From Microcoleus vaginatus WJT46-NPBG5 (GTDB lineage: Bacteria; Cyanobacteriota; Cyanobacteriia; Cyanobacteriales; Oscillatoriaceae), in contig JAHHHM010000009.1 in assembly GCA_019359355.1 (NCBI GenBank), forward strand, positions 62,001-126,000: DNA of 64,000 nt, written 5' to 3'. The number at the start of each line of letters is the position of its first letter. Within the stretch, counting starts at the first letter, position 1. Made by a program: the position numbers and the translations under genes. Positions 3,347 to 12,162 of this stretch are shown here, piece by piece. The notes beneath the pieces were generated by a model, which was given only the letters and a program-made list of their open reading frames with translations, searched no databases and was not told the origin of the DNA.

Positions 3347-3632
3347 CGTTTGCTTGGCGGCGGAATTTTGAGCCGGTAATAATTTTGAGTTTATCTCTTA
3401 AACAGCAATTCGGAAAATCTCGTTATCCCGTCAGACGACTGCCAAAAAATATGAATATAGCAGCGGGTTTAGCCGGCATTTAACGCTTATTGTCTCTTAA
3501 TTTCCCTGTAAACTCGTCCTCCCCCAACTTTTGGCGTTTCAATTTTTGTATCAGTTATGTGTACACGATTTATTTGAGGTTAACTTAGGTACACCCAGGA
3601 AGCAGCACTCGATTTTCTCTAAAAAAATCCTT

Positions 3633-4589
3633 ATGAAAAGTGACTTCAAACCCAAATCCGCCGAATATTCCACCCAACTCAACCCACCTCAAACCTTTGC
3701 CGGCAGCCAGCGGTTTAGTGTTGTCTTGGTGCTTACAGTGCTATCTGCCGTCATGATGGCAAGCTGTGCCCAGCAAGCCAGTCAATACAACGCCTCTATG
3801 GAAAGTTCTCCCGTGCCGCCGGCAAATGCTCCAGCGCCAGCAAATCAGGCTGTCACGGCTGCTGAAGTGCCGAAAGCCGCACCCCAACTGATTAAAAATG
3901 CAGGGCTAACTCTCATGGTCAAATCTATTGACAAAACCATGAAAGAAGTTTCTGCAATTGCCCAAACCCAGCAGGGAGATATCTTAGGATTTCAGAATCA
4001 AAAGCCTCAAGATTCCAGTATGCGGCACACAGCATCCATGCGAATTCGGGTGCCGCAAAACAAATTGGAAGCGACGTTAGATGCTTTAACTAGATTGGGA
4101 ACTGTGCAAAAACAAACCCTGACGGCAGAGGATGTTTCAAATCAGTTAGTCGATTTAGATGCACGGCTGCGGAATTTGCGAAAATCTGAAGAATTGACTT
4201 TAAAAATAATGGAGCGCTCTGGTTCTATTGGGGATGTGTTAAAAGCATCTCAACAAGTCAATACCATTCGCGATGAGATTGAGCGCATTGATGCTCAGTT
4301 AAAAAAGTTGCGAGATCAGGTTGCCTACTCGACTATTTTGCTTAATCTAGAAGCGGCTGTTTCTGCTTCGTCTAAGACGCAGCCAACCTTAGGTTTGCGG
4401 ATGCAGGAAAGCTGGGGTAAAGCGACTCACTCAGTTAGTGAATTTACTTTAGGTTTACTTGCTTTGAGCATTTGGTTAGTTGCTTTCAGCCCTTATTTGC
4501 TTTTAGGGGGTGCGGCTATCTATGGCTTTCAACGATTTAGAAAACACAAGTCTCTTTCGAGGGTTCACCAGGCGAAAGTAAGGGAGTGA
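3633..4589 (+). CDS. DUF4349-domain lipoprotein
   Basis: 318 residues from the ATG at 3633. An upstream in-frame TTG at 3531 would add 34 residues ahead of the signal sequence, so the ATG is preferred. The N-terminus has a hydrophobic segment ending in a lipobox-like MMASC (Cys about 45), a Pro/Ala-rich linker, the DUF4349 core (NAGLTLMVKSIDKTMKEV onward), a central coiled coil (about 185-240) and a C-terminal membrane segment followed by basic residues. This is the usual DUF4349 plan of an envelope protein held in the membrane. Function is unknown. Its 3' end has a second, displaced copy at 7169-7268. Confidence 0.85.
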   Translation: MKSDFKPKSAEYSTQLNPPQTFAGSQRFSVVLVLTVLSAVMMASCAQQASQYNASMESSPVPPANAPAPANQAVTAAEVPKAAPQLIKNAGLTLMVKSIDKTMKEVSAIAQTQQGDILGFQNQKPQDSSMRHTASMRIRVPQNKLEATLDALTRLGTVQKQTLTAEDVSNQLVDLDARLRNLRKSEELTLKIMERSGSIGDVLKASQQVNTIRDEIERIDAQLKKLRDQVAYSTILLNLEAAVSASSKTQPTLGLRMQESWGKATHSVSEFTLGLLALSIWLVAFSPYLLLGGAAIYGFQRFRKHKSLSRVHQAKVRE

Positions 4590-4684
4590 AGGGTAGAAAT
4601 AAAGGTCGAGCCGGTGCTTGGTAATTATCTATAGCAGAACGGCTCTGATGGGATGCTTTCGTTGGGTTTCGCTTCAAATCCGGT

Positions 4685-4795
4685 TACATCGGAATCATAC
4701 AGTAGCGAAAGTGATCGTCTCGCTCGCTCTAATTAGCTAAAGCGAACGAGACGCTTGCACTACAACTCAAACAATTATGTATGATTCGATGCCAG
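4685..4795. repeat. Nested inverted repeat between convergent genes
   Basis: An inner imperfect palindrome pairs CGTCTCGCTCGCT (4716-4728) with AGCGAACGAGACG (4741-4753). An outer pair of arms, ATCGGAATCATACA and TGTATGATTCGAT, encloses it. The unit lies between the DUF4349 gene and the convergent pathogen-related gene, so it may act as a transcription barrier or be a small mobile hairpin repeat. No T-run typical of an intrinsic terminator follows. Confidence 0.6.
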
Positions 4796-4822
4796 CGGAA
4801 ACGAGATGACCTCTTCCTTTGA

Positions 4823-5479
4823 TTAATGACTTACGGGACATCCTCCGCTCGTTAACCCTGTCAAGAAATTATTGGTGTCAAAGAAATGTTCTACAGACTC
4901 AAGTTTTAAATTTTCTGTGACTTTAGCAATACTAAGACCAATAATTTCAATAGTTTCTCCTTTCCCTTGATGATCTTTGTAAGATCCCTTAAAGATACCC
5001 CAGTGTCTCCACTTAAACACAACGTTAGGAGGCCCTGCAACGACTTCGAGTAATTCCCAGTGAAAGCCGTCGGGAAAAGCTGTGTGAAAGAGGTTGTACG
5101 AGGATTGAAAGGTTTCATCAGACGCGCGGTAGTGATCTGAGTTTTCTAGAAAGAGATTATAGGTTCCCTGATCTACAATCTCTTCGGCTGTGTATTCTTT
5201 TCCGCCATTAGTTCTCATACGGAATTTATCCGTAACGACAGAGATCCATTGTTGGGGATTGGTTTTGAAGGATGCTTCCATTTCAAATGTTCTCACCAGA
5301 TTATAGGCGATCTCATTCAAAGACCCTTCGACATGATTGTGTTTCTTTTCCTTTTCCAAGGAAGCATTACTGTGAGAATAGTCTGGACGATTTCCGTACC
5401 GCCATTCTACTCCATCATCCTGTTTCAAAACTTCTTCTCTATCTTGCACCCAGAGGGGTAAGCCGGGAGTTGTACTCAT
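4823..5479 (-). CDS. Homologue of plant pathogen-related proteins (SnoaL/NTF2-like fold)
   Basis: 218 residues. The sequence follows the layout of the plant pathogen-related (PR) protein family: LPLWVQDREEVLKQDDGVEWRYGNRPDY at the N-terminus, the EGSLNEIAYNLVRTFEMEASFK block, then TDKFRMRTNGG and GFHWELLEVVAGPP, VVFKWRHWG and SVEHFFD in the C-terminal half. These proteins belong to the NTF2/SnoaL superfamily, a cone-shaped fold that binds small ligands. The true ligand is unknown. The start is supported by TAGGAGA 10 to 13 bases upstream of the ATG. The resemblance to the plant family is recalled from its sequence, not from a search. Confidence 0.75.
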   Translation of the reverse strand: MSTTPGLPLWVQDREEVLKQDDGVEWRYGNRPDYSHSNASLEKEKKHNHVEGSLNEIAYNLVRTFEMEASFKTNPQQWISVVTDKFRMRTNGGKEYTAEEIVDQGTYNLFLENSDHYRASDETFQSSYNLFHTAFPDGFHWELLEVVAGPPNVVFKWRHWGIFKGSYKDHQGKGETIEIIGLSIAKVTENLKLESVEHFFDTNNFLTGLTSGGCPVSH

Positions 5480-5622
5480 ACCTGTTAATCTCCTAGGATT
5501 TGGGTTAATACAAATCTTGATACTACAATGAAAGACTGACGGTTTTGATTCGAGAGTATTGGAAAAATAATATTAAACTGAAAATTATCGCCCTGTCAAT
5601 CCTACGCAGCCATAAACCTAAG

Positions 5623-5879
5623 AGGATGTTCTAAAAGTGAAGAGGTATTGTAAGAAAGCTCACAAGGCTTAAGCTGAAATTTGTAGATACCGGCCAGGGC
5701 TGTTTCATTCTAGTTGAGTAGTGGATATGTTAGTAAAGTATCGTACTCATCCCCCGGAGTTGTATGTCTCAACTTGCCATTCTCGAAGCCTTTGCAGACT
5801 TGCCTAACAGCTATCGCACCGAGTAACTGAATGGGAGCCAAATCCCTAACTAACAGCCTCGGTACTTTTTAGAGGACCC
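5623..5879 (+). mobile_element. Probable insertion-sequence relict with inverted ends
   Basis: The ends form an imperfect inverted repeat: AGGATGTTCTAAAAGT at the left and ACTTTTTAGAGGACCCT at the right (about 14 of 17 pairs). Inside, an ATG at 5764 opens a 20-codon ORF (MSQLAILEAFADLPNSYRTE) that recalls the first residues of ISAs1/H-repeat transposases but stops at once. A remnant of an IS with its body deleted is the simplest reading; the family is not certain. Confidence 0.4.
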
Positions 5880-6009
5880 TGACTAAATTTTGTTGGCTTA
5901 TACTCCTTTGAAAACAGATGAATACAGATGCTTAATTCGTTGAAGCGAGGATTTATTTTTTTAACCGCAGATCAATCCAGATGTTGGTGATAGTCTTTGT
6001 TGGGGAAAG

Positions 6010-6082
6010 GTTATTAGGGCTGGGATGAAATAAGATAGGCTGTGCCAGAATACTGCTGGTCTTTTTGTATCTTTTTCTTTTA
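6010..6082 (+). pseudogene. Left part of a duplicated kinase promoter region, cut by IS630
   Basis: The stretch TTAGGGCTGGGATGAAATAAG through CTTTTTGTATCTTTTTCTTTTA resembles the DNA just upstream of the Ser/Thr kinase gene (about 10688-10757). The similarity stops at the IS630 end and resumes directly after it at 7037. The insertion therefore split a copy of the kinase upstream region. Confidence 0.7.
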
Positions 6083-7036
6083 TAGCACTACGCGATAAGA
6101 TTAGGACAATGATACAATAAGAAGAAAGCTCTAAGTCCCCCAAAATAATATGCCAGCTCCCTATAGTTATGACCTGCGAACAAAAGCCATTGAGGCGTTC
6201 AAGAGAGGACAAAGAAAAAGCGAAATATGTCGTCTGCTAGAAATTAGTCGCAATACCTTAGACTTGTGGCTAAAAAAAGAAAAATCAACGGGAGACTATC
6301 AAGCCAACACGAACAGACAGAAAGGCAGAACCCCCAAAATCAAAGATGAGACAAAGTTTCAAGAGTTTATCAAAGAGCATAAAGAGCTAACTCAAGGGAG
6401 GATAGCCGAATTATGGGGAGAGGGTTTAACTCAACAAAATGTGAGTTATGCGTGTAAAAAGCTAGGCATAACCCGAAAAAAAAAACTTACGGTTATCAAG
6501 AAAGAGATGAAGAGCTGAGAACAGAGTTCATCAAAAGACTGTCAGAAGTCCCTCAAGAAAAATTAGTCTATGTCGATGAAGCTTTTTGATGAGCGAGAAG
6601 ACTATCCCTATGGTTATAGTCCTAAAGGGGAAAGATGTTACGCACTCAAACCTGGAAGAAAAAGAGAAAGAAGTAATTGGATTAGTGCGTTAAAAGCTGG
6701 AAAGTTATTAGCGCCTTTAACATTTGTTGGAGGGTGTCATCGAGATTTAGTTGAGGCTTGGCTCAAGCAAAGTCTAGTGCCTCAATTAGAAAGAGGAGAT
6801 ATCGTTATTCTTGATAATGCCACATTTCATAAGGGGGGAAAGATCAGAGAAATTATCGAAAGTGCCGGATGTGAGGTGTGGTATCTACCACCTTATTCAC
6901 CGGATTTAAACAAAATAGAAAATTGGTGGGCACTCTTAAAAATGTGGATGAAACAGAGACTGAAGGAATTTGAAACAGTCAGGGAATGTGTAGATGCAGC
7001 CTTCAAACAATGTCATAACGTTTTTGCGTAGTGCTA
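6083..7036 (+). mobile_element. IS630-family insertion sequence, full length (954 bp)
   Basis: Terminal inverted repeats TAGCACTACGC (6083-6093) and GCGTAGTGCTA (7026-7036) enclose a transposase reading region, and both sides carry TA (6081-6082 and 7037-7038), the target duplication of this family. Removing the element and one TA restores TTTTCTTTTAACAA, exactly the sequence found upstream of the kinase gene at 10746-10759. The insertion and its boundaries are thus proved within the window. Confidence 0.92.
6150..7031 (+). pseudogene. IS630-family transposase, frameshifted
   Basis: Bases 6150-6518 encode an N-terminal helix-turn-helix half (MPAPYSYDLRTKAIEAFKRG onward, 122 residues). The catalytic half continues in another frame from the A10 run at 6476-6485: KTYGYQERDEEL to LVYVDEA, a -1 shift. 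After GCT at 6581-6583 the frame breaks again; two bases seem lost from the usual DEAGFD motif, and coding resumes at 6588 in the first frame to the stop at 7031. The DDE residues are all recognisable (VDEA, ILDNATFHK, DLNKIENWW). The A10 site could be programmed frameshifting, but the second break should inactivate the enzyme. Confidence 0.85.
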
Positions 7037-7038
7037 TA

Positions 7039-7268
7039 ACAAGTTAGGGAGTATATTGATTGATAAGTTGTTAGTGGGATGAACTGCGTTCTTATGGAAC
7101 CACTGCACCAGATAGGAGAGATCATTGCTGAGCGATACCGGCTCATCAATCTTTTAGGGCAGGGTGGAAACGATTTAGAAAACACAAGTCTCTTTCTAGA
7201 GTTCAGCAGGCGAAAGCAAGAGAGTGAAGGATAGAAATGAAAAGTTGAGTTGTTGCCTGGTAATGCTC
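7039..7268 (+). pseudogene. Chimeric relict: 5' of Ser/Thr-kinase gene fused to 3' of DUF4349 gene
   Basis: Bases 7039-7167 match the upstream region and first codons of the kinase gene at 10756-10885 (shared GTTGTTAGTGGGATG, TTATGGAACCACTGCACCAG, GAGCGATACCG and TTTTAGGGCAGGGTGG). Bases 7169-7268 then match the 3' end and downstream region of the DUF4349 gene at 4531-4628 (shared AACGATTTAGAAAACACAAG and TCTCTTTC). A small ORF from ATG 7079 to TAG 7232-7234 runs across the join (51 codons); its first 30 or so residues are kinase-like up to LLGQGG and the rest is out of frame relative to DUF4349. Whether it is expressed is unknown. Confidence 0.85.
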
Positions 7269-7307
7269 TAGGCAATTCTCCCTTTAGCGTTAGAACTCTA
7301 GGGAAAA

Positions 7308-8891
7308 TCACAGGTGAGAATCAGGGATATCGCTTGCCGGCAAAGTGTCGGGTGATTGTTCTGTTGGTGTTTCTTCTAAAAGCTCAGCTTCTGGAAGGAT
7401 GAATGGTTGAAAACGAATATCACCCGGTTCAATGGCTAGCCTTCTCCACCAAGCCGGCAGCAGAAGCAGCCAAAACTTACCTAGAGACACAGCGCGTTGC
7501 TCATGAACAAAAACCAAAGGCAGGAGAGCAAGCAGTCTTAGGACGGCTGAGAGGGCAAACACCCCCGGCAAGCCATTAAACTCACTGACAGTTGCGAGAA
7601 AGCCACCGAGGGTGATTCCCATTGCGCCGCCGACACCAGGAACCGCCGCCGCAATCGCAAAGTAAATAGACTGATTTCGCAGCGGTGCCACTCCCATCAA
7701 AAGATTGCTGCTGCACAGATCAATTGCTGCCCACGTCCCACCGCCGACGATATACAACAGGGGGAACCAAACCCAAAGGAAAATTGGGGCGGTTCCCGCT
7801 TCTAGCCAGAGTAGCGGTGTTAGGGCGACCAAAACTCCCACGACGATCATCAGGGGGCGATTTCCCACCCGATCAGCCAGTTTGCCCCACAAAACTAGCA
7901 TTAGCAAGTTAGCACCGGCTCCTAAGCTGCCATAAAGCGTAACCAGGCTGACATCTATCGCTAAGTCATCAAGCAGGTAGAGGTTAAAGAAGGGGGCGCT
8001 AACATTTACGGCAAAGCTCCATAGGGCAGAGTAAAACAAAAACTTCAAAAAATTAGCGTCTTTGAGGAAGCTAAAAACATTCCCTGTTGGCGAGTTGTGG
8101 GCGGTATCTGAATGGGTGAGGTGTACTTGCTGCGGGTTCACATCGGCCATAAAGAACTGACAGGACAGACTGACTAACCCCAGCGCAATGCCTAGAACCA
8201 AGACAGTGCTGTAACCTTGGAGCGTTCCACCGGGCCACTTTGATATTGCTAAACCCAACACCGGCACACCGATAAGATTTGTCAAGCTGATCGCACTGTT
8301 GCGAAAGCCAAAATACCGACCCCGCAATCGCTCAGGGACTAAGGCAGCCAACCAGCTGAACCAAGAAGCTCGGCCCAAGGCTTCCATGATATTGGTGATC
8401 CAGATAATGGCGAGTGTTAGCTGTACCAGCCGGTGGTTAGTGAGATGAAACGAGCCTCCGAACCAAAGTGCCGGCACGAGAATCAACCACAGCAGCCGTG
8501 ATGGACCGAAAATGCAGATGGAATACCAGTGCCGACTTTTCGTGCGATCTGCGATATACGCCCCCACGGGTTGCAGCAGATTCGTTAGCTGAGGAATTGA
8601 GGCTAGCATCCCAATTTCTACGGGGCCGGCACCTAAACCGAGCAAGAAATTACTGAGCAACGCGCCGCCGATGATACTGTAAAAAATCGTAGCGAAGACA
8701 CCTTCGAGGGTTATTGCGCTGAGGCTTGAGCGAATTGCCGACTTGGGAATTTTTTGAGGCGGGTTTGCTAGAAGTGCTGTCTCTGATGATGCCCGATCTT
8801 CTTGGATTTCCTGAAGGGTAAGAGGGATTGCTTCCCCTAAGGTCTCATTTTCGACTTGACTGAATATACTAGACAGCCAATTTTTTAACAT
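7308..8891 (-). CDS. Major facilitator superfamily transporter
   Basis: 527 residues with about 12 hydrophobic segments after a hydrophilic N-terminal stretch of about 65 residues. A typical MFS loop 2-3 motif is present (GAYIADRTKSR), as is RLRGRYFGFRNS and, in the second half, GKLADRVGNRP. It is clearly paralogous to the transporter at 50936-52465: both share KSAIRSSL/KQAIRSSL, LQPVGAY/LQPMGAY, FMADVNPQQ and GGGTWAAIDLCS. The substrate cannot be told. Its 3' end lies 40 bases from the mosaic relict. No clear ribosome binding site precedes the ATG. Confidence 0.85.
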   Translation of the reverse strand: MLKNWLSSIFSQVENETLGEAIPLTLQEIQEDRASSETALLANPPQKIPKSAIRSSLSAITLEGVFATIFYSIIGGALLSNFLLGLGAGPVEIGMLASIPQLTNLLQPVGAYIADRTKSRHWYSICIFGPSRLLWLILVPALWFGGSFHLTNHRLVQLTLAIIWITNIMEALGRASWFSWLAALVPERLRGRYFGFRNSAISLTNLIGVPVLGLAISKWPGGTLQGYSTVLVLGIALGLVSLSCQFFMADVNPQQVHLTHSDTAHNSPTGNVFSFLKDANFLKFLFYSALWSFAVNVSAPFFNLYLLDDLAIDVSLVTLYGSLGAGANLLMLVLWGKLADRVGNRPLMIVVGVLVALTPLLWLEAGTAPIFLWVWFPLLYIVGGGTWAAIDLCSSNLLMGVAPLRNQSIYFAIAAAVPGVGGAMGITLGGFLATVSEFNGLPGVFALSAVLRLLALLPLVFVHEQRAVSLGKFWLLLLPAWWRRLAIEPGDIRFQPFILPEAELLEETPTEQSPDTLPASDIPDSHL

Positions 8892-9211
8892 ATAAATATT
8901 TAATTAGTATGAGTTTGTGTGGCTTAACAAAAATATCTAAATTCATAAAGCACTTGTGATTTTAACTGTATTCGTTTTATATAGGTTCTGTCAAAAGATT
9001 GATTTTTACATTAAATTAGTTTGTGTTATTTTATACAAGATTTTTGCTAAAAATAAAAATTCTTTCTGCTTTATGTTTTTATTCATTAGCTAGATTTGAG
9101 TTCTTGTTGTTTTTTATTAGCTAATTTTAAGATGAAAAATTTATTTCAATTTCTACAAAAAAATTGAAAAAGGTTTGCATTTTTGTCAGATCCCCAGCCT
9201 TTTATTTTGTT
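8892..9211. other. AT-rich intergenic gap
   Basis: Upstream region of the MFS gene and 3' region of the serine hydrolase gene (both on the minus strand). Strongly AT-rich with T-runs. No ORF, RNA gene or convincing operator was recognised. Confidence 0.6.
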
Positions 9212-10477
9212 TCAAAAATTCACTCCATTTAAGAATCGCTTTTTCTTTCTGGAAGCATTCTCTAGAACATCACAAACTTTATTTAAATTAGCCCATTCCG
9301 AGTTACTCATCGCCACAAATGCCAGACGTTCATCTGGATAAATAATCAAGCGAGTTCTCGTTTTTGGCTGAGCGCCGGCACCGATAATGCGCTTTCTGTC
9401 CTTAAACTCGCCCACACTAAAACCCATGCTTTGCTTCATGGATTTGCCCTCCCTATATTGGCTGCCTTTCCAGAGAATATCTTGTTTAATCTGTGCCGGC
9501 AGCACATCTTCTCTATTTATCAAACCCTTACAATATTGTGCCAAATTTTCAACAGTAGAAATAAAACCACCAGCAGGTAATCTCCAGCTCACATCTTTAC
9601 TTTCAACTCTTGCATATTTTCTAGTTTTTTTGTTGTAATTGTATCCAATTGCCCGACGCGGAATATTCACCCATTCCCAATCTGGTTGAAAGCAAGTTTC
9701 TGATAAATAACCGGCTTCAGGGTGATTGGGAAAGGATGTTGGTGTCATGCCAAACGGCACGGCTATTTTGTCACGCACTTTTTCCCAATAAGACTGAGAT
9801 GTATTGCCGGCACGCTCAATCACCATTCCCGCAAGGGTGTAGCCGTAAACGGAATAACTGTATTGAGTGCCGGGAATATAAAGCAAATGATCGGGATCAT
9901 TCCAAAAATATTTTCCTGCCCAAAAGATGCCGGTATTAACATTGGGATCATTAATTAAATGATCTGGAGGAACACCCGCTTCGTTAGGGCCATTACTAAA
10001 ATCTTTGATTCCCGAATCATGGTTAAGAAGCATTCGAGGGGTGATGCACAATTTAGTATAATTTGGAATTGTCTGTATCTGAAATTTGCCATTTTCTAAG
10101 GGATAAGCATAGTTATTTGGAAACTTATATCCTGGCACGTAGTTTCTGACATCTGTGTCGAGATCGAGGGTGCCGGCAAACACAGCTTGCATTGCTACAA
10201 CACCTGTTACTGATTTTGACAGGGACGCCCAACGGAACATGGTTTTATGAGCTTCCACCGGCACTTTATTTTCAAAGTCTTCGTAGCCGTAACCTTTGAG
10301 ATAAATAATTTCTTCATTTTTAACGATGCCAATGGCTAGCCCATAAAGTTTTTGCTTAGCCATTTCCCTCTGCACCGCCCGATCAATTTCAAGAGCGTTG
10401 GAGTAAGGATTTGACGCGTTTTCCTCTTTTACTTGATAGGGGCGATCAGGCTGATTCCCAAAAAAGAAATTTTTCAA
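9212..10477 (-). CDS. Serine hydrolase of the beta-lactamase/class C family, atypical motifs
   Basis: 421 residues, with no signal peptide. The nucleophile motif SxxK is present (WASLSKSVTG, about residues 85-94). The second motif, usually YxN, reads YSV in QYSYSVYGYTLAG (about 200-212), and the usual HxG near the C-terminus is replaced by GAGAQPKTRTRL. Family members act as peptidases, esterases or carboxypeptidases; retention of only the first motif makes activity uncertain. The gene stands alone between an MFS transporter and the oppositely oriented kinase. Confidence 0.75.
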   Translation of the reverse strand: MKNFFFGNQPDRPYQVKEENASNPYSNALEIDRAVQREMAKQKLYGLAIGIVKNEEIIYLKGYGYEDFENKVPVEAHKTMFRWASLSKSVTGVVAMQAVFAGTLDLDTDVRNYVPGYKFPNNYAYPLENGKFQIQTIPNYTKLCITPRMLLNHDSGIKDFSNGPNEAGVPPDHLINDPNVNTGIFWAGKYFWNDPDHLLYIPGTQYSYSVYGYTLAGMVIERAGNTSQSYWEKVRDKIAVPFGMTPTSFPNHPEAGYLSETCFQPDWEWVNIPRRAIGYNYNKKTRKYARVESKDVSWRLPAGGFISTVENLAQYCKGLINREDVLPAQIKQDILWKGSQYREGKSMKQSMGFSVGEFKDRKRIIGAGAQPKTRTRLIIYPDERLAFVAMSNSEWANLNKVCDVLENASRKKKRFLNGVNF

Positions 10478-10506
10478 GGTTTTTTGTAAAGGTTGATTTT
10501 TTTTAC

Positions 10507-10572
10507 CGCAGATGATAACGCAGGGTGCCGTTAGACATACGCAGATGATAGCGCAGCGTGTTGTTAGGCATA
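10507..10572. repeat. Imperfect 33-bp tandem duplication
   Basis: Two adjacent 33-bp units start CGCAGATGATAACGCAG (10507-10539) and CGCAGATGATAGCGCAG (10540-10572) and end TTAGACATA and TTAGGCATA. They lie in the 320-bp gap between the divergent hydrolase and kinase genes. Apart from these units and a TATACT box near 10628, nothing else was recognised in that gap. Confidence 0.8.
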
Positions 10573-10812
10573 TACAACTGATTAATGATTATAGATGATT
10601 GCAGATAGGGTTAACCGACAAATAGTGTATACTTCTCACTAGGCTATCGTTAATATTTGTATTTTTTTATTAAAATTTTTTTTGCAGAAAATGGGCTGGG
10701 ATGAGATAAGAGAAGTTGTAAAAATGCCAATTCTCTGTTTGTATATTTTTCTTTTAACAAATTTGAGAGTATATTCTATTAATGAGTTGTTAGTGGGATG
10801 CGCTGCGCTCTT

Positions 10813-12162
10813 ATGGAACCACTGCACCAGATGGGGGACATTATTGTTGAGCGATACCGACTTACCAATATTTTAGGGCAGGGTGGGATCGGGATCACTT
10901 ATGAAGCCGAAGATAAAGAAACCGGCAAGCGAGTGGCACTGAAGGAGGTATCACTACGCCGGCTGACTGATTGGAAGGTTCTGGAATTGTTTGAACGAGA
11001 GGCACGGGTACTCTCCGAACTCAATCATCCAAGCATTCCGGCTTACTTAGATTACTTTCAGGTGGATACCGCCAGTGATCGGAGTTTTTATTTGGTTCAA
11101 GAAATCGCACCGGGGAAGTCAATTGCAGCGCTAGTAGAAACCGGCTGGCGGGCATCAGAAGGTGAAGTGCAAAAACTGGCGATTCGAGTCTTAGAAATCC
11201 TTAGCTATTTGCAGAGTTTAACGCCGCCGGTGATTCACCGAGATATTAAGCCCCAAAATATTATTCTGGCGGAAGATGGGCAAGTTTCTTTGGTGGATTT
11301 TGGCGCAGTACAAGACACTTACCGACATACATTTGTCGGCAGTAGTACGGTGGTGGGTACTTATGGATATATGGCACCGGAGCAATTTCGGGAGAAAGCA
11401 GAACCGGCAACAGATTTGTACGGTTTAGGCGCAACTTTATTATTTTTGCTAACACATCAATCGCCGGCAGATTTACCGCAGCGCCGGCTTAAAATAGAAT
11501 TTCGCTCTCTAGTTCAAATTTCAGATGACTTTGCCGGCTGGATAGAAACCCTCATTGAACCGGCTGTGGAAGATCGGTTTTCTTCAGCAAAGGAAGCGTT
11601 GGCAGTTTTGTTAGGTGAACGAGAAATTATTTATCCCAGATTATCCACTCTTCAGCAACCTGCCGGTAGTCGCATTATTTTGAACAAAACTGCTTCACGC
11701 TTAGTTGTGAATATTCCCTCTCCTAGATTGAGTTTTACTGACCTATTCTTCGCAGTTTTTAACCTCATCCTGAACCTAGGGCTTTTTTCTTTGGTTGCTC
11801 TAGCCCTTGAGCAAACAGTAGCGCTATTATTGCCCTTCCCTAGTATATTTCTCCGGTCTGTCGGGCTGAGTATAATAGTATTTGTTGGGCTGAGTCTGGT
11901 AGGATTATCCCTGTCCAGTATTGCTCGTAGTGAGAAATTAGAGATAGCTCAGCAAACCTTTCGGCTGCGTTGGAAGTTGCTGTGCTTCAGCCACCAAATC
12001 CAGGGGGGAACAGAAAATGTAGAACTTCTCTGCGATGTTGTTTCCTGTAGCTTAGTCGTTGGAGTGAGAAAGTACCGCTTCGCTTCAAACTTAATGCCGG
12101 CAGAAAAAGAATGGTTAGTGGCGGAATTAAATAATTTTCTAGGAAAACCACCGTATAAGTAG
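10813..12162 (+). CDS. Membrane-anchored serine/threonine protein kinase
   Basis: Hanks-type kinase. Glycine loop LGQGGIGITYEA, the ATP-binding lysine in VALKEVSL, catalytic loop HRDIKPQN, DFG in LVDFGAVQD and the GTYGYMAPEQF activation segment are all present, so it should be active. After about residue 290 a linker leads to two hydrophobic segments (about 305-370) and a short C-terminal domain that looks like cyanobacterial PH-like tails. Three in-frame ATGs exist (10798, 10813, 10831). The displaced copy at 7079 keeps the first two but not the third, so 10813 is taken; 10798 is possible. The promoter and first codons are duplicated at 7039-7167. Confidence 0.88.
   Translation: MEPLHQMGDIIVERYRLTNILGQGGIGITYEAEDKETGKRVALKEVSLRRLTDWKVLELFEREARVLSELNHPSIPAYLDYFQVDTASDRSFYLVQEIAPGKSIAALVETGWRASEGEVQKLAIRVLEILSYLQSLTPPVIHRDIKPQNIILAEDGQVSLVDFGAVQDTYRHTFVGSSTVVGTYGYMAPEQFREKAEPATDLYGLGATLLFLLTHQSPADLPQRRLKIEFRSLVQISDDFAGWIETLIEPAVEDRFSSAKEALAVLLGEREIIYPRLSTLQQPAGSRIILNKTASRLVVNIPSPRLSFTDLFFAVFNLILNLGLFSLVALALEQTVALLLPFPSIFLRSVGLSIIVFVGLSLVGLSLSSIARSEKLEIAQQTFRLRWKLLCFSHQIQGGTENVELLCDVVSCSLVVGVRKYRFASNLMPAEKEWLVAELNNFLGKPPYK

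What the first reader, a model, noticed from the sequence alone, without database searches (positions are those of the whole stretch)
6010..7268. Mosaic scar: kinase 5' end fused to DUF4349 3' end, then split by IS630
Bases 6010-6082 plus 7039-7167 copy the upstream region and first codons of the Ser/Thr kinase gene (10.8 kb), while 7169-7268 copy the 3' end of the DUF4349 gene (4.5 kb). Both donors are in the window in the same orientation and flank the scar. A shared TTTTAGGG occurs in both donors near the join, suggesting recombination there. The layered order (fusion, then transposon insertion, with divergence afterwards) gives a small history of local rearrangement.
Basis: seen in the sequence. 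Interest (0 to 1): 0.8.

Follow-up and report, generated by a model that had tools for sequence, protein, structure and literature searches.

The report
Old rearrangement scar, later hit by transposon
A cyanobacterial chromosome carries a dead joint between the start of one gene and the end of its neighbour, which looks like the leftover seam of an old local duplication that took in a foreign gene, probably passed between related species and was later hit by a jumping element; it is a clear record of genome reshuffling but an ordinary kind of event.

Summary
The mosaic is real. Bases 6017-6082 and 7037-7167 copy the kinase gene's 5' region and 7169-7270 copy the DUF4349 gene's 3' end (75.8-85.6% identity). 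An IS630 element with a duplicated TA sits in the kinase part. One same-genus genome (G001) has the same joint without this IS630, so the joint came first; the other (G002) has no joint and no SnoaL-like gene, just DUF4349-MFS-hydrolase-kinase. TTTTAGGG is not the crossover: kinase sequence runs 8 bases past it and DUF4349 sequence resumes 22 bases after its own copy.

The order DUF4349 - spacer - kinase 5' | DUF4349 3' - MFS - hydrolase - kinase fits the novel joint of a tandem duplication (or a re-integrated circle). The spacer holds no MFS or hydrolase remnant but a laterally acquired SnoaL-like gene. That spacer is 96.8% identical between G000 and G001, with 4 of 84 fourfold changes against 18.3% pooled over 55 genes, so it probably moved between lineages; by plain identity it stands out only marginally. 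The kinase stub has 0 synonymous and 8 non-synonymous changes: decay, no function. A readable but ordinary rearrangement scar.

The parts
3531..4589 (+). DUF4349 gene (D), intact; its 3' end is the parent type of the scar's right half
   Evidence: Pfam PF14257 E 2e-52
4531..4631 (+). left copy of the 100-base D 3'-end repeat
   Evidence: 85.3% to 7169-7270
4823..5479 (-). SnoaL-like gene, patchy and laterally acquired, in the spacer where a duplication would have put MFS and hydrolase
   Evidence: SnoaL E 2.5e-5, 24.5 bits, below Pfam's cut-off of 28.4; no match in G002; 91-92% DNA identity over 4704-5621 (in one case 4674-5621) to four genomes of one genus of another family
5618..5694 (.). 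short relic resembling the stretch just upstream of an IS5-family transposase gene
   Evidence: 84.4% over 77 bases to Nostoc plasmid NZ_CP040298.1, next to a gene annotated IS5 family transposase
5932..6011 (.). dispersed repeat (ACCGCAGAT type); not counted as part of the kinase copy
6017..6082 (+). copy of the kinase upstream region, left of the IS
   Evidence: 75.8% to 10693-10756
6083..7036 (+). IS630-family element, ends TAGCACTACGC/GCGTAGTGCTA, flanked by TA duplicates (6081-6082, 7037-7038)
   Evidence: three other near full-length copies in this genome at 93-94%
7037..7167 (+). copy of the kinase upstream end and first 29 codons (start 7079)
   Evidence: 85.6% to 10755-10886; codon comparison
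7167..7169 (.). kinase|DUF4349 joint with one unassigned base and about 0-1 base of microhomology, the same in G001
7169..7270 (+). copy of the DUF4349 3' end and 3' flank, contiguous with the MFS spacer as in G002
   Evidence: window 7169-10523 aligns to L023 6917-10283 in one piece
7308..8891 (-). MFS transporter gene
   Evidence: PF07690 E 2e-32
9212..10477 (-). serine hydrolase (beta-lactamase superfamily) gene
   Evidence: PF00144 E 3e-47
10798..12162 (+). Ser/Thr protein kinase gene (K), intact; parent type of the scar's left half
   Evidence: PF00069 E 2e-39

Best explanation
The scar is the seam of an old duplication of the interval from the 3' end of DUF4349 (D) to the 5' end of the kinase (K). 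Starting from D-MFS-hydrolase-K (the G002 order), an illegitimate exchange joined the end of codon 29 of K to the last codons of D, giving D-[copy 1]-K'|D'-[copy 2]-K. Copy 2 stayed functional. Copy 1 was free to decay: MFS and hydrolase disappeared and a laterally acquired SnoaL-like gene with an IS relic came to lie there. The block D-tail/SnoaL/K' then passed by homologous recombination between relatives, so that G000 and G001 carry nearly the same block in more diverged surroundings. Last, an IS630 element hopped into a TA inside K' in the G000 lineage; G001 independently received a different IS, also at a TA, about 70 bases upstream. Shown: the joint, the gene orders, the IS-after-joint order. 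Supported by small counts: decay of K' without purifying selection. Inferred: duplication as the origin, the loss in copy 1, the transfer between lineages.
For: Orders in the three genomes: G002 has D-MFS-hydrolase-K with no scar; G001 has D-SnoaL-IS-K'|D'-MFS-hydrolase-K. D' is contiguous with MFS as in G002. Same joint in both scarred genomes. Hydrolase lies next to D also in the three fetched genomes of another genus of the family (L025-L027), so its absence from the SnoaL spacer is probably derived, and costless where a second copy exists. K' codons: 0 synonymous, 8 non-synonymous changes, against 5 and 2 in the three intact K genes, Fisher p = 0.007. SnoaL fourfold divergence G000-G001 4 of 84, lowest of 55 genes, pooled 18.3%. 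Substitutions G000-G001: 23 in 253 at 4201-4453, 45 in 1440 at 4573-6012, 3 in 156 at 7041-7196, 23 in 115 at 7197-7311. Site without the IS in G001 and TA duplicates.
Against: No trace of MFS or hydrolase is left in 4590-6016 by blastn or tblastx, apart from a dispersed repeat and weak chance matches, so the doubled middle that a duplication predicts is not seen. Hydrolase was not found beside D in the four other fetched loci outside the genus (L028-L031). Only three genomes of the genus are held and they are equidistant (91.9, 92.0, 91.9%), so the direction of change is not fixed; G002 could have lost the block by recombination between D and D'. By plain identity the block is only the top of 321 overlapping 1.4-kb tracts (96.7% against 96.4% for the next), and G000-G002 tracts elsewhere reach 97.6%; between G000 and G002 one gene has 1 of 79 fourfold changes. 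The block's two noncoding pieces rank 3rd and 4th lowest of 45, not lowest. The left edge of the similar tract is not sharp: 1 change in 103 at 4454-4556, then 6 in 16 at 4557-4572. With 23% of random changes synonymous, 0 of 8 is only mildly unusual by itself; the contrast with K rests on 15 changes.
Confidence: 0.5

Rival explanations
1. Foreign-fragment capture with one-sided homology: DNA from a related species with order D-SnoaL-K entered a D-MFS-hydrolase-K cell, crossed over in D by homology on the left, and was joined almost without homology on the right, its broken kinase end to the resident D 3' end (homology-facilitated illegitimate recombination; name and idea recalled).
For: One event gives the whole structure; the D tail in G000 and G001 shares states that differ from D' and from G002's D, as if of donor type (alignment); block less diverged than its surroundings; joint with about 0-1 base of microhomology; no MFS or hydrolase remnant needed.
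Against: No D-SnoaL-K order was found. Part of the block matches in 119 of 388 genomes of the order; flanks were compared in 18 SnoaL loci and in 4 loci (one of them the same place), all with about 1.5 kb on each side, and no D tail or kinase stub matched beside SnoaL there. K' stem changes are 6 non-synonymous and 0 synonymous, pointing to decay after truncation rather than divergence as a working gene in a donor; the number is small.
Confidence: 0.3
2. Insertion of a SnoaL-bearing piece at the D 3' end with a 100-base duplication of the target and a filler copied from the kinase 5' region (break repair by template switching).
For: The D 3' end is repeated on both sides of the block; no MFS or hydrolase remnant is needed.
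Against: Needs a filler copied from about 6 kb away that by chance matches what a duplication seam would give.
Confidence: 0.15
3. A genuine small hybrid gene (kinase N-terminus with DUF4349-derived C-terminus) kept by selection.
For: Open frames of 51 aa (G000) and 44 aa (G001) run across the joint.
Against: 0 of 8 codon changes in the kinase part synonymous, different frame ends in the two genomes, IS inserted upstream in G000. The DUF4349-derived part is read in another frame than in the DUF4349 gene. No third copy of the joint in the three genomes; the exact 26-base joint is absent from viral contigs.
Confidence: 0.02
4. Assembly artefact or chance similarity.
For: The genome is a draft of 44 contigs.
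Against: The same joint is in a second genome, and the two main matches have E of 1e-26 and 1e-37.
Confidence: 0.01

Closest known systems
Novel joint of a bacterial tandem duplication, followed by loss of parts of one copy (recalled)
   Same: Downstream gene's start joined to upstream gene's end, flanked in direct order by both parents; an unduplicated relative exists
   Different: The first copy's original middle is not seen and a laterally acquired gene lies there; the block seems to have moved between species
Homology-facilitated illegitimate recombination in natural transformation (recalled; only a search listing seen)
   Same: Would give one homologous edge and one edge with almost no homology
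   Different: Donor order D-SnoaL-K not found
Genomic islands inserted at a gene's 3' end (recalled)
   Same: Gene end repeated on both sides of the inserted block; the upstream gene keeps a full 3' end
   Different: No integrase found, about 1.6 kb without the IS, repeat diverged by about 15% in this genome
IS630 family insertion sequences
   Same: HTH_Tnp_IS630 and DDE_3 domains, inverted ends, TA duplicated on insertion
   Different: Nothing beyond the known kind was seen

Membership tests
Tandem-duplication novel joint | Downstream element's 5' part joined to upstream element's 3' part, parents outside in direct order | tested here: met
Tandem-duplication novel joint | Second copy of the material between the breakpoints, or its remnants | tested here: not met
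   only the edges (D 3' flank, K upstream) are doubled; no MFS or hydrolase remnant in 4590-6016. So it is not filed as a proven member; loss of the copy is inferred
Tandem-duplication novel joint | Unduplicated relative with the same gene order | tested here: met
   G002, L023
Homology-facilitated illegitimate recombination | Foreign block with a homologous edge on one side | tested here: inconclusive
   D tail looks donor-type, donor order not found
Homology-facilitated illegitimate recombination | Other edge joined at a few matching bases or none | tested here: met
   about 0-1 base
IS630 family | Transposase HTH and DDE domains | tested here: met
   PF01710 E 5e-13, PF13358 E 1e-36
IS630 family | TA target duplicated, inverted ends | tested here: met
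   site without the IS in G001
Genomic island at a gene 3' end | Integrase or recombinase in the block | tested here: not met
   frames of at least 60 aa in 4590-7308; the SnoaL-like and the two transposase frames were run against Pfam, the other short frames were not
Functional kinase/DUF4349 hybrid gene | Purifying selection on the frame | tested here: not met
   0 synonymous, 8 non-synonymous in the kinase part

The most novel reading that the evidence does not exclude
The 3' end of DUF4349, with a 26-base run identical in all five D and D' copies compared, acts as a docking place where small blocks without an integrase are taken up and passed between cyanobacterial species by the host's own homologous recombination, the K'|D' seam being the closing joint of a circle that carried the block.
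Probability: 0.12. Interest if true: 0.45.

Novelty: new member of a known kind. Interest (0 to 1): 0.25.

Why it matters
It is a readable sequence of events (joint, foreign gene, probable transfer between species, transposon) at one locus, anchored by a scarred and an unscarred relative. If the duplication reading is right, it shows how a redundant copy can become the landing place of a foreign gene and how a dead seam can outlive the duplication that made it. It does not change what is known about the genes or about rearrangement.

Tried and rejected
TTTTAGGG as crossover: rejected, because kinase sequence continues 8 bases past it and DUF4349 sequence resumes 22 bases past its own copy; an 8-mer is shared by 1010 of 5000 random 120-base window pairs.

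Longer kinase-upstream homology: 5900-6016 against the hydrolase-kinase spacer of G002 scores 57, reached by 0 of 500 shuffles (own spacer: 3 of 500; G001's: 68 of 500), but the same stretch scores 52-71 at six other places of a dispersed repeat, five of them 57 or more, so it is not counted as part of the scar.

Species tree to polarise gain or loss: the three genomes are equidistant (the sums hold two or three paralogous blocks of about 66% per pair), no answer. Remnants of MFS or hydrolase in the spacer: none; the matches listed were a dispersed repeat and weak chance matches. The exact 26-base joint in viral contigs: 0 matches. Plasmids: 12 records match parts (IS630, SnoaL-like gene, IS5 relic); no listed best place reaches the joint, none covers 80% of the query, and 7 further places were not listed. 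Rfam on 3400-11000: 0 matches at gathering scores. The genome-contig scan with the DUF4349 protein gave one distant locus, Oscillatoriales cyanobacterium USR001, not used further. Papers: four searches, only listings and abstract openings seen; DUF4349 with cyanobacteria gave 0 papers; no paper was opened, and I make no claim about absence from print.

Dropped before counts: genes with fewer than 40 fourfold sites and noncoding stretches under 100 aligned bases; blast blocks under 1400 columns, under 800 or of 500 and less, under 80% identity, and reversed ones. In one search two bases beside the IS were left out of the kinase-copy row by my slice.

After the filing check I ran and changed: the joint is put at 7167-7169 instead of 7168/7169; the unsharp left edge, the G000-G002 controls, L028-L031 and the rank of the noncoding pieces were added.

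Full report
WHAT WAS CLAIMED AND WHAT IS THERE. A self-comparison of the window finds three matches in the same orientation: 7037-7167 with 10755-10886 (85.6% over 132), 6017-6082 with 10693-10756 (75.8% over 66), and 7169-7270 with 4531-4631 (85.3% over 102), E from 1e-37 to 4e-6. The parents are a Ser/Thr kinase gene (PF00069) and a DUF4349 gene (PF14257). Between the two kinase pieces lies an IS630-family element with HTH_Tnp_IS630 and DDE_3 domains, inverted ends and a duplicated TA.

RELATIVES. DUF4349 relatives occur in 21 of 60 genomes searched, the own genome and two of the same genus included; the genus search covers three genomes including the window's own. G002 (L023) has uvrD - DUF4349 - MFS - serine hydrolase - kinase with no scar and no SnoaL-like gene. 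G001 (L024) has uvrD - DUF4349 - SnoaL-like - an IS with DDE_3 and HTH domains - scar - MFS - serine hydrolase - kinase. The joint is the same in G000 and G001; a search of the three genomes finds it twice and otherwise only the parent genes' own stretches; and G001 lacks the window's IS630 at that site. So the joint is older than the IS630 insertion and is not an assembly fault.

THE JOINT. The scar follows the kinase through ...TTTTAGGGCAGGGTGG (7167 = 10886), has one unassigned base, and follows DUF4349 from AACGATTTAG (7169 = 4531); the DUF4349 copy of TTTTAGGG (4501-4508) ends 22 bases before that point. The shared 8-mer is therefore not the crossover, and such a match is found in 1010 of 5000 random pairs of windows of that size. 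About 0-1 base of microhomology remains. A run of 26 bases after the joint is identical in all five DUF4349 3' ends compared.

ORIGIN. The order DUF4349 - spacer - kinase 5' | DUF4349 3' - MFS - hydrolase - kinase is that of a duplication seam or of a circle put back in: the right part of the scar is contiguous with MFS as in the unscarred G002 (window 7169-10523 to L023 6917-10283), while the left DUF4349 gene is whole. Hydrolase is next to DUF4349 in three fetched genomes of another genus of the family (L025-L027) but was not found beside it in the four other fetched loci outside the genus (L028-L031). The spacer holds no MFS or hydrolase remnant, so one prediction of a duplication is not met and loss has to be inferred. 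It holds a SnoaL-like gene that is missing in G002, patchy across relatives (23 of 100 genomes, own included), and 91-92% identical in DNA over 919-949 columns to four genomes of one genus in another family, although the DUF4349 protein of one of these, G039, is only 62% identical to the window's. The window's SnoaL-like gene differs from theirs at 6 to 8 of 80-81 fourfold sites, about half the 18.3% pooled between G000 and G001. An IS5-like relic lies beside it. This is lateral gain, in whichever direction.

MOVEMENT BETWEEN SPECIES. G000, G001 and G002 are equidistant: 91.9, 92.0 and 91.9% over 81-83 kb aligned, a few paralogous blocks included. Between G000 and G001 there are 23 substitutions in 253 bases at 4201-4453, 1 in 103 at 4454-4556, 6 in 16 at 4557-4572, 45 in 1440 at 4573-6012, 4 in 72 at 6011-6082, 3 in 156 at 7041-7196, 23 in 115 at 7197-7311 and 30 in 489 at 7312-7800: sharp on the right, unsharp on the left. 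SnoaL has 4 of 84 fourfold changes, the lowest of 55 genes (next 8 of 109; pooled 18.3%); the block's noncoding pieces have 3.3% and 4.1%, 3rd and 4th lowest of 45 (pooled 10.4%). Against eight flanking genes pooled (320 of 1544) Fisher p = 1e-4. On plain identity the block tops 321 overlapping tracts, but by only 0.3 points, and G000-G002 tracts elsewhere reach 97.6%; one G000-G002 gene has 1 of 79 fourfold changes. Transfer is likely, not proven. In passing, a 193-base deleted IS630 derivative beside uvrD is shared by G000 and G002 with no match in G001's fetched stretch, a conflicting pattern that also speaks for mixing between lineages, or for loss.

FUNCTION. The kinase stub has 0 synonymous and 8 non-synonymous changes (6 on the shared stem, 1 on each tip), against 5 and 2 in the three intact kinase genes (Fisher p = 0.007; 23% of random single changes would be synonymous). 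The hybrid frames are 51 aa in G000 and 44 aa in G001, with different ends, and their DUF4349-derived part is not read in DUF4349's own frame. No function is indicated.

VERDICT. A real, multi-step rearrangement scar of a known kind. Duplication seam 0.5, foreign fragment with one homologous edge 0.3, insertion with filler 0.15. Interest is modest: the history is unusually readable, the mechanism ordinary.

Noticed in passing
742-934: Internally deleted IS630 derivative of 193 bases (left end 742-809, right end 803-934 of the same element type) beside uvrD; present at the same place in G002 (L023 3108-3300), no match in G001's L024, opposite to the sharing of the scar.
   Followed up: partly
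L024 8472-9620: G001 has its own IS (DDE_3 and HTH frames of 188 and 167 aa, at a TA) about 70 bases upstream of where the window's IS630 sits: an independent hit on the same dead stretch.
   Followed up: partly
4716-4758: Inverted repeat downstream of the SnoaL-like gene, matching in both orientations in the four lateral relatives (in one only 4716-4752); may be a terminator hairpin, not folded.
   Followed up: no
11569-11968: Middle of the kinase gene aligns at only about 70% DNA identity among the three genomes, where the neighbouring windows are at 86-94%; misalignment not excluded.
   Followed up: no
5932-6011: Dispersed repeat with ACCGCAGAT units found at several other places in the three genomes.
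   Followed up: partly
4531-4556: 26-base run identical in all five DUF4349 3' ends and remnants although the repeats around it differ by about 15% in this genome.
   Followed up: partly
10798-12162: This genome has 72 matches to the kinase protein at E <= 0.001, the relatives 73 and 69: a very large kinase set.
   Followed up: no
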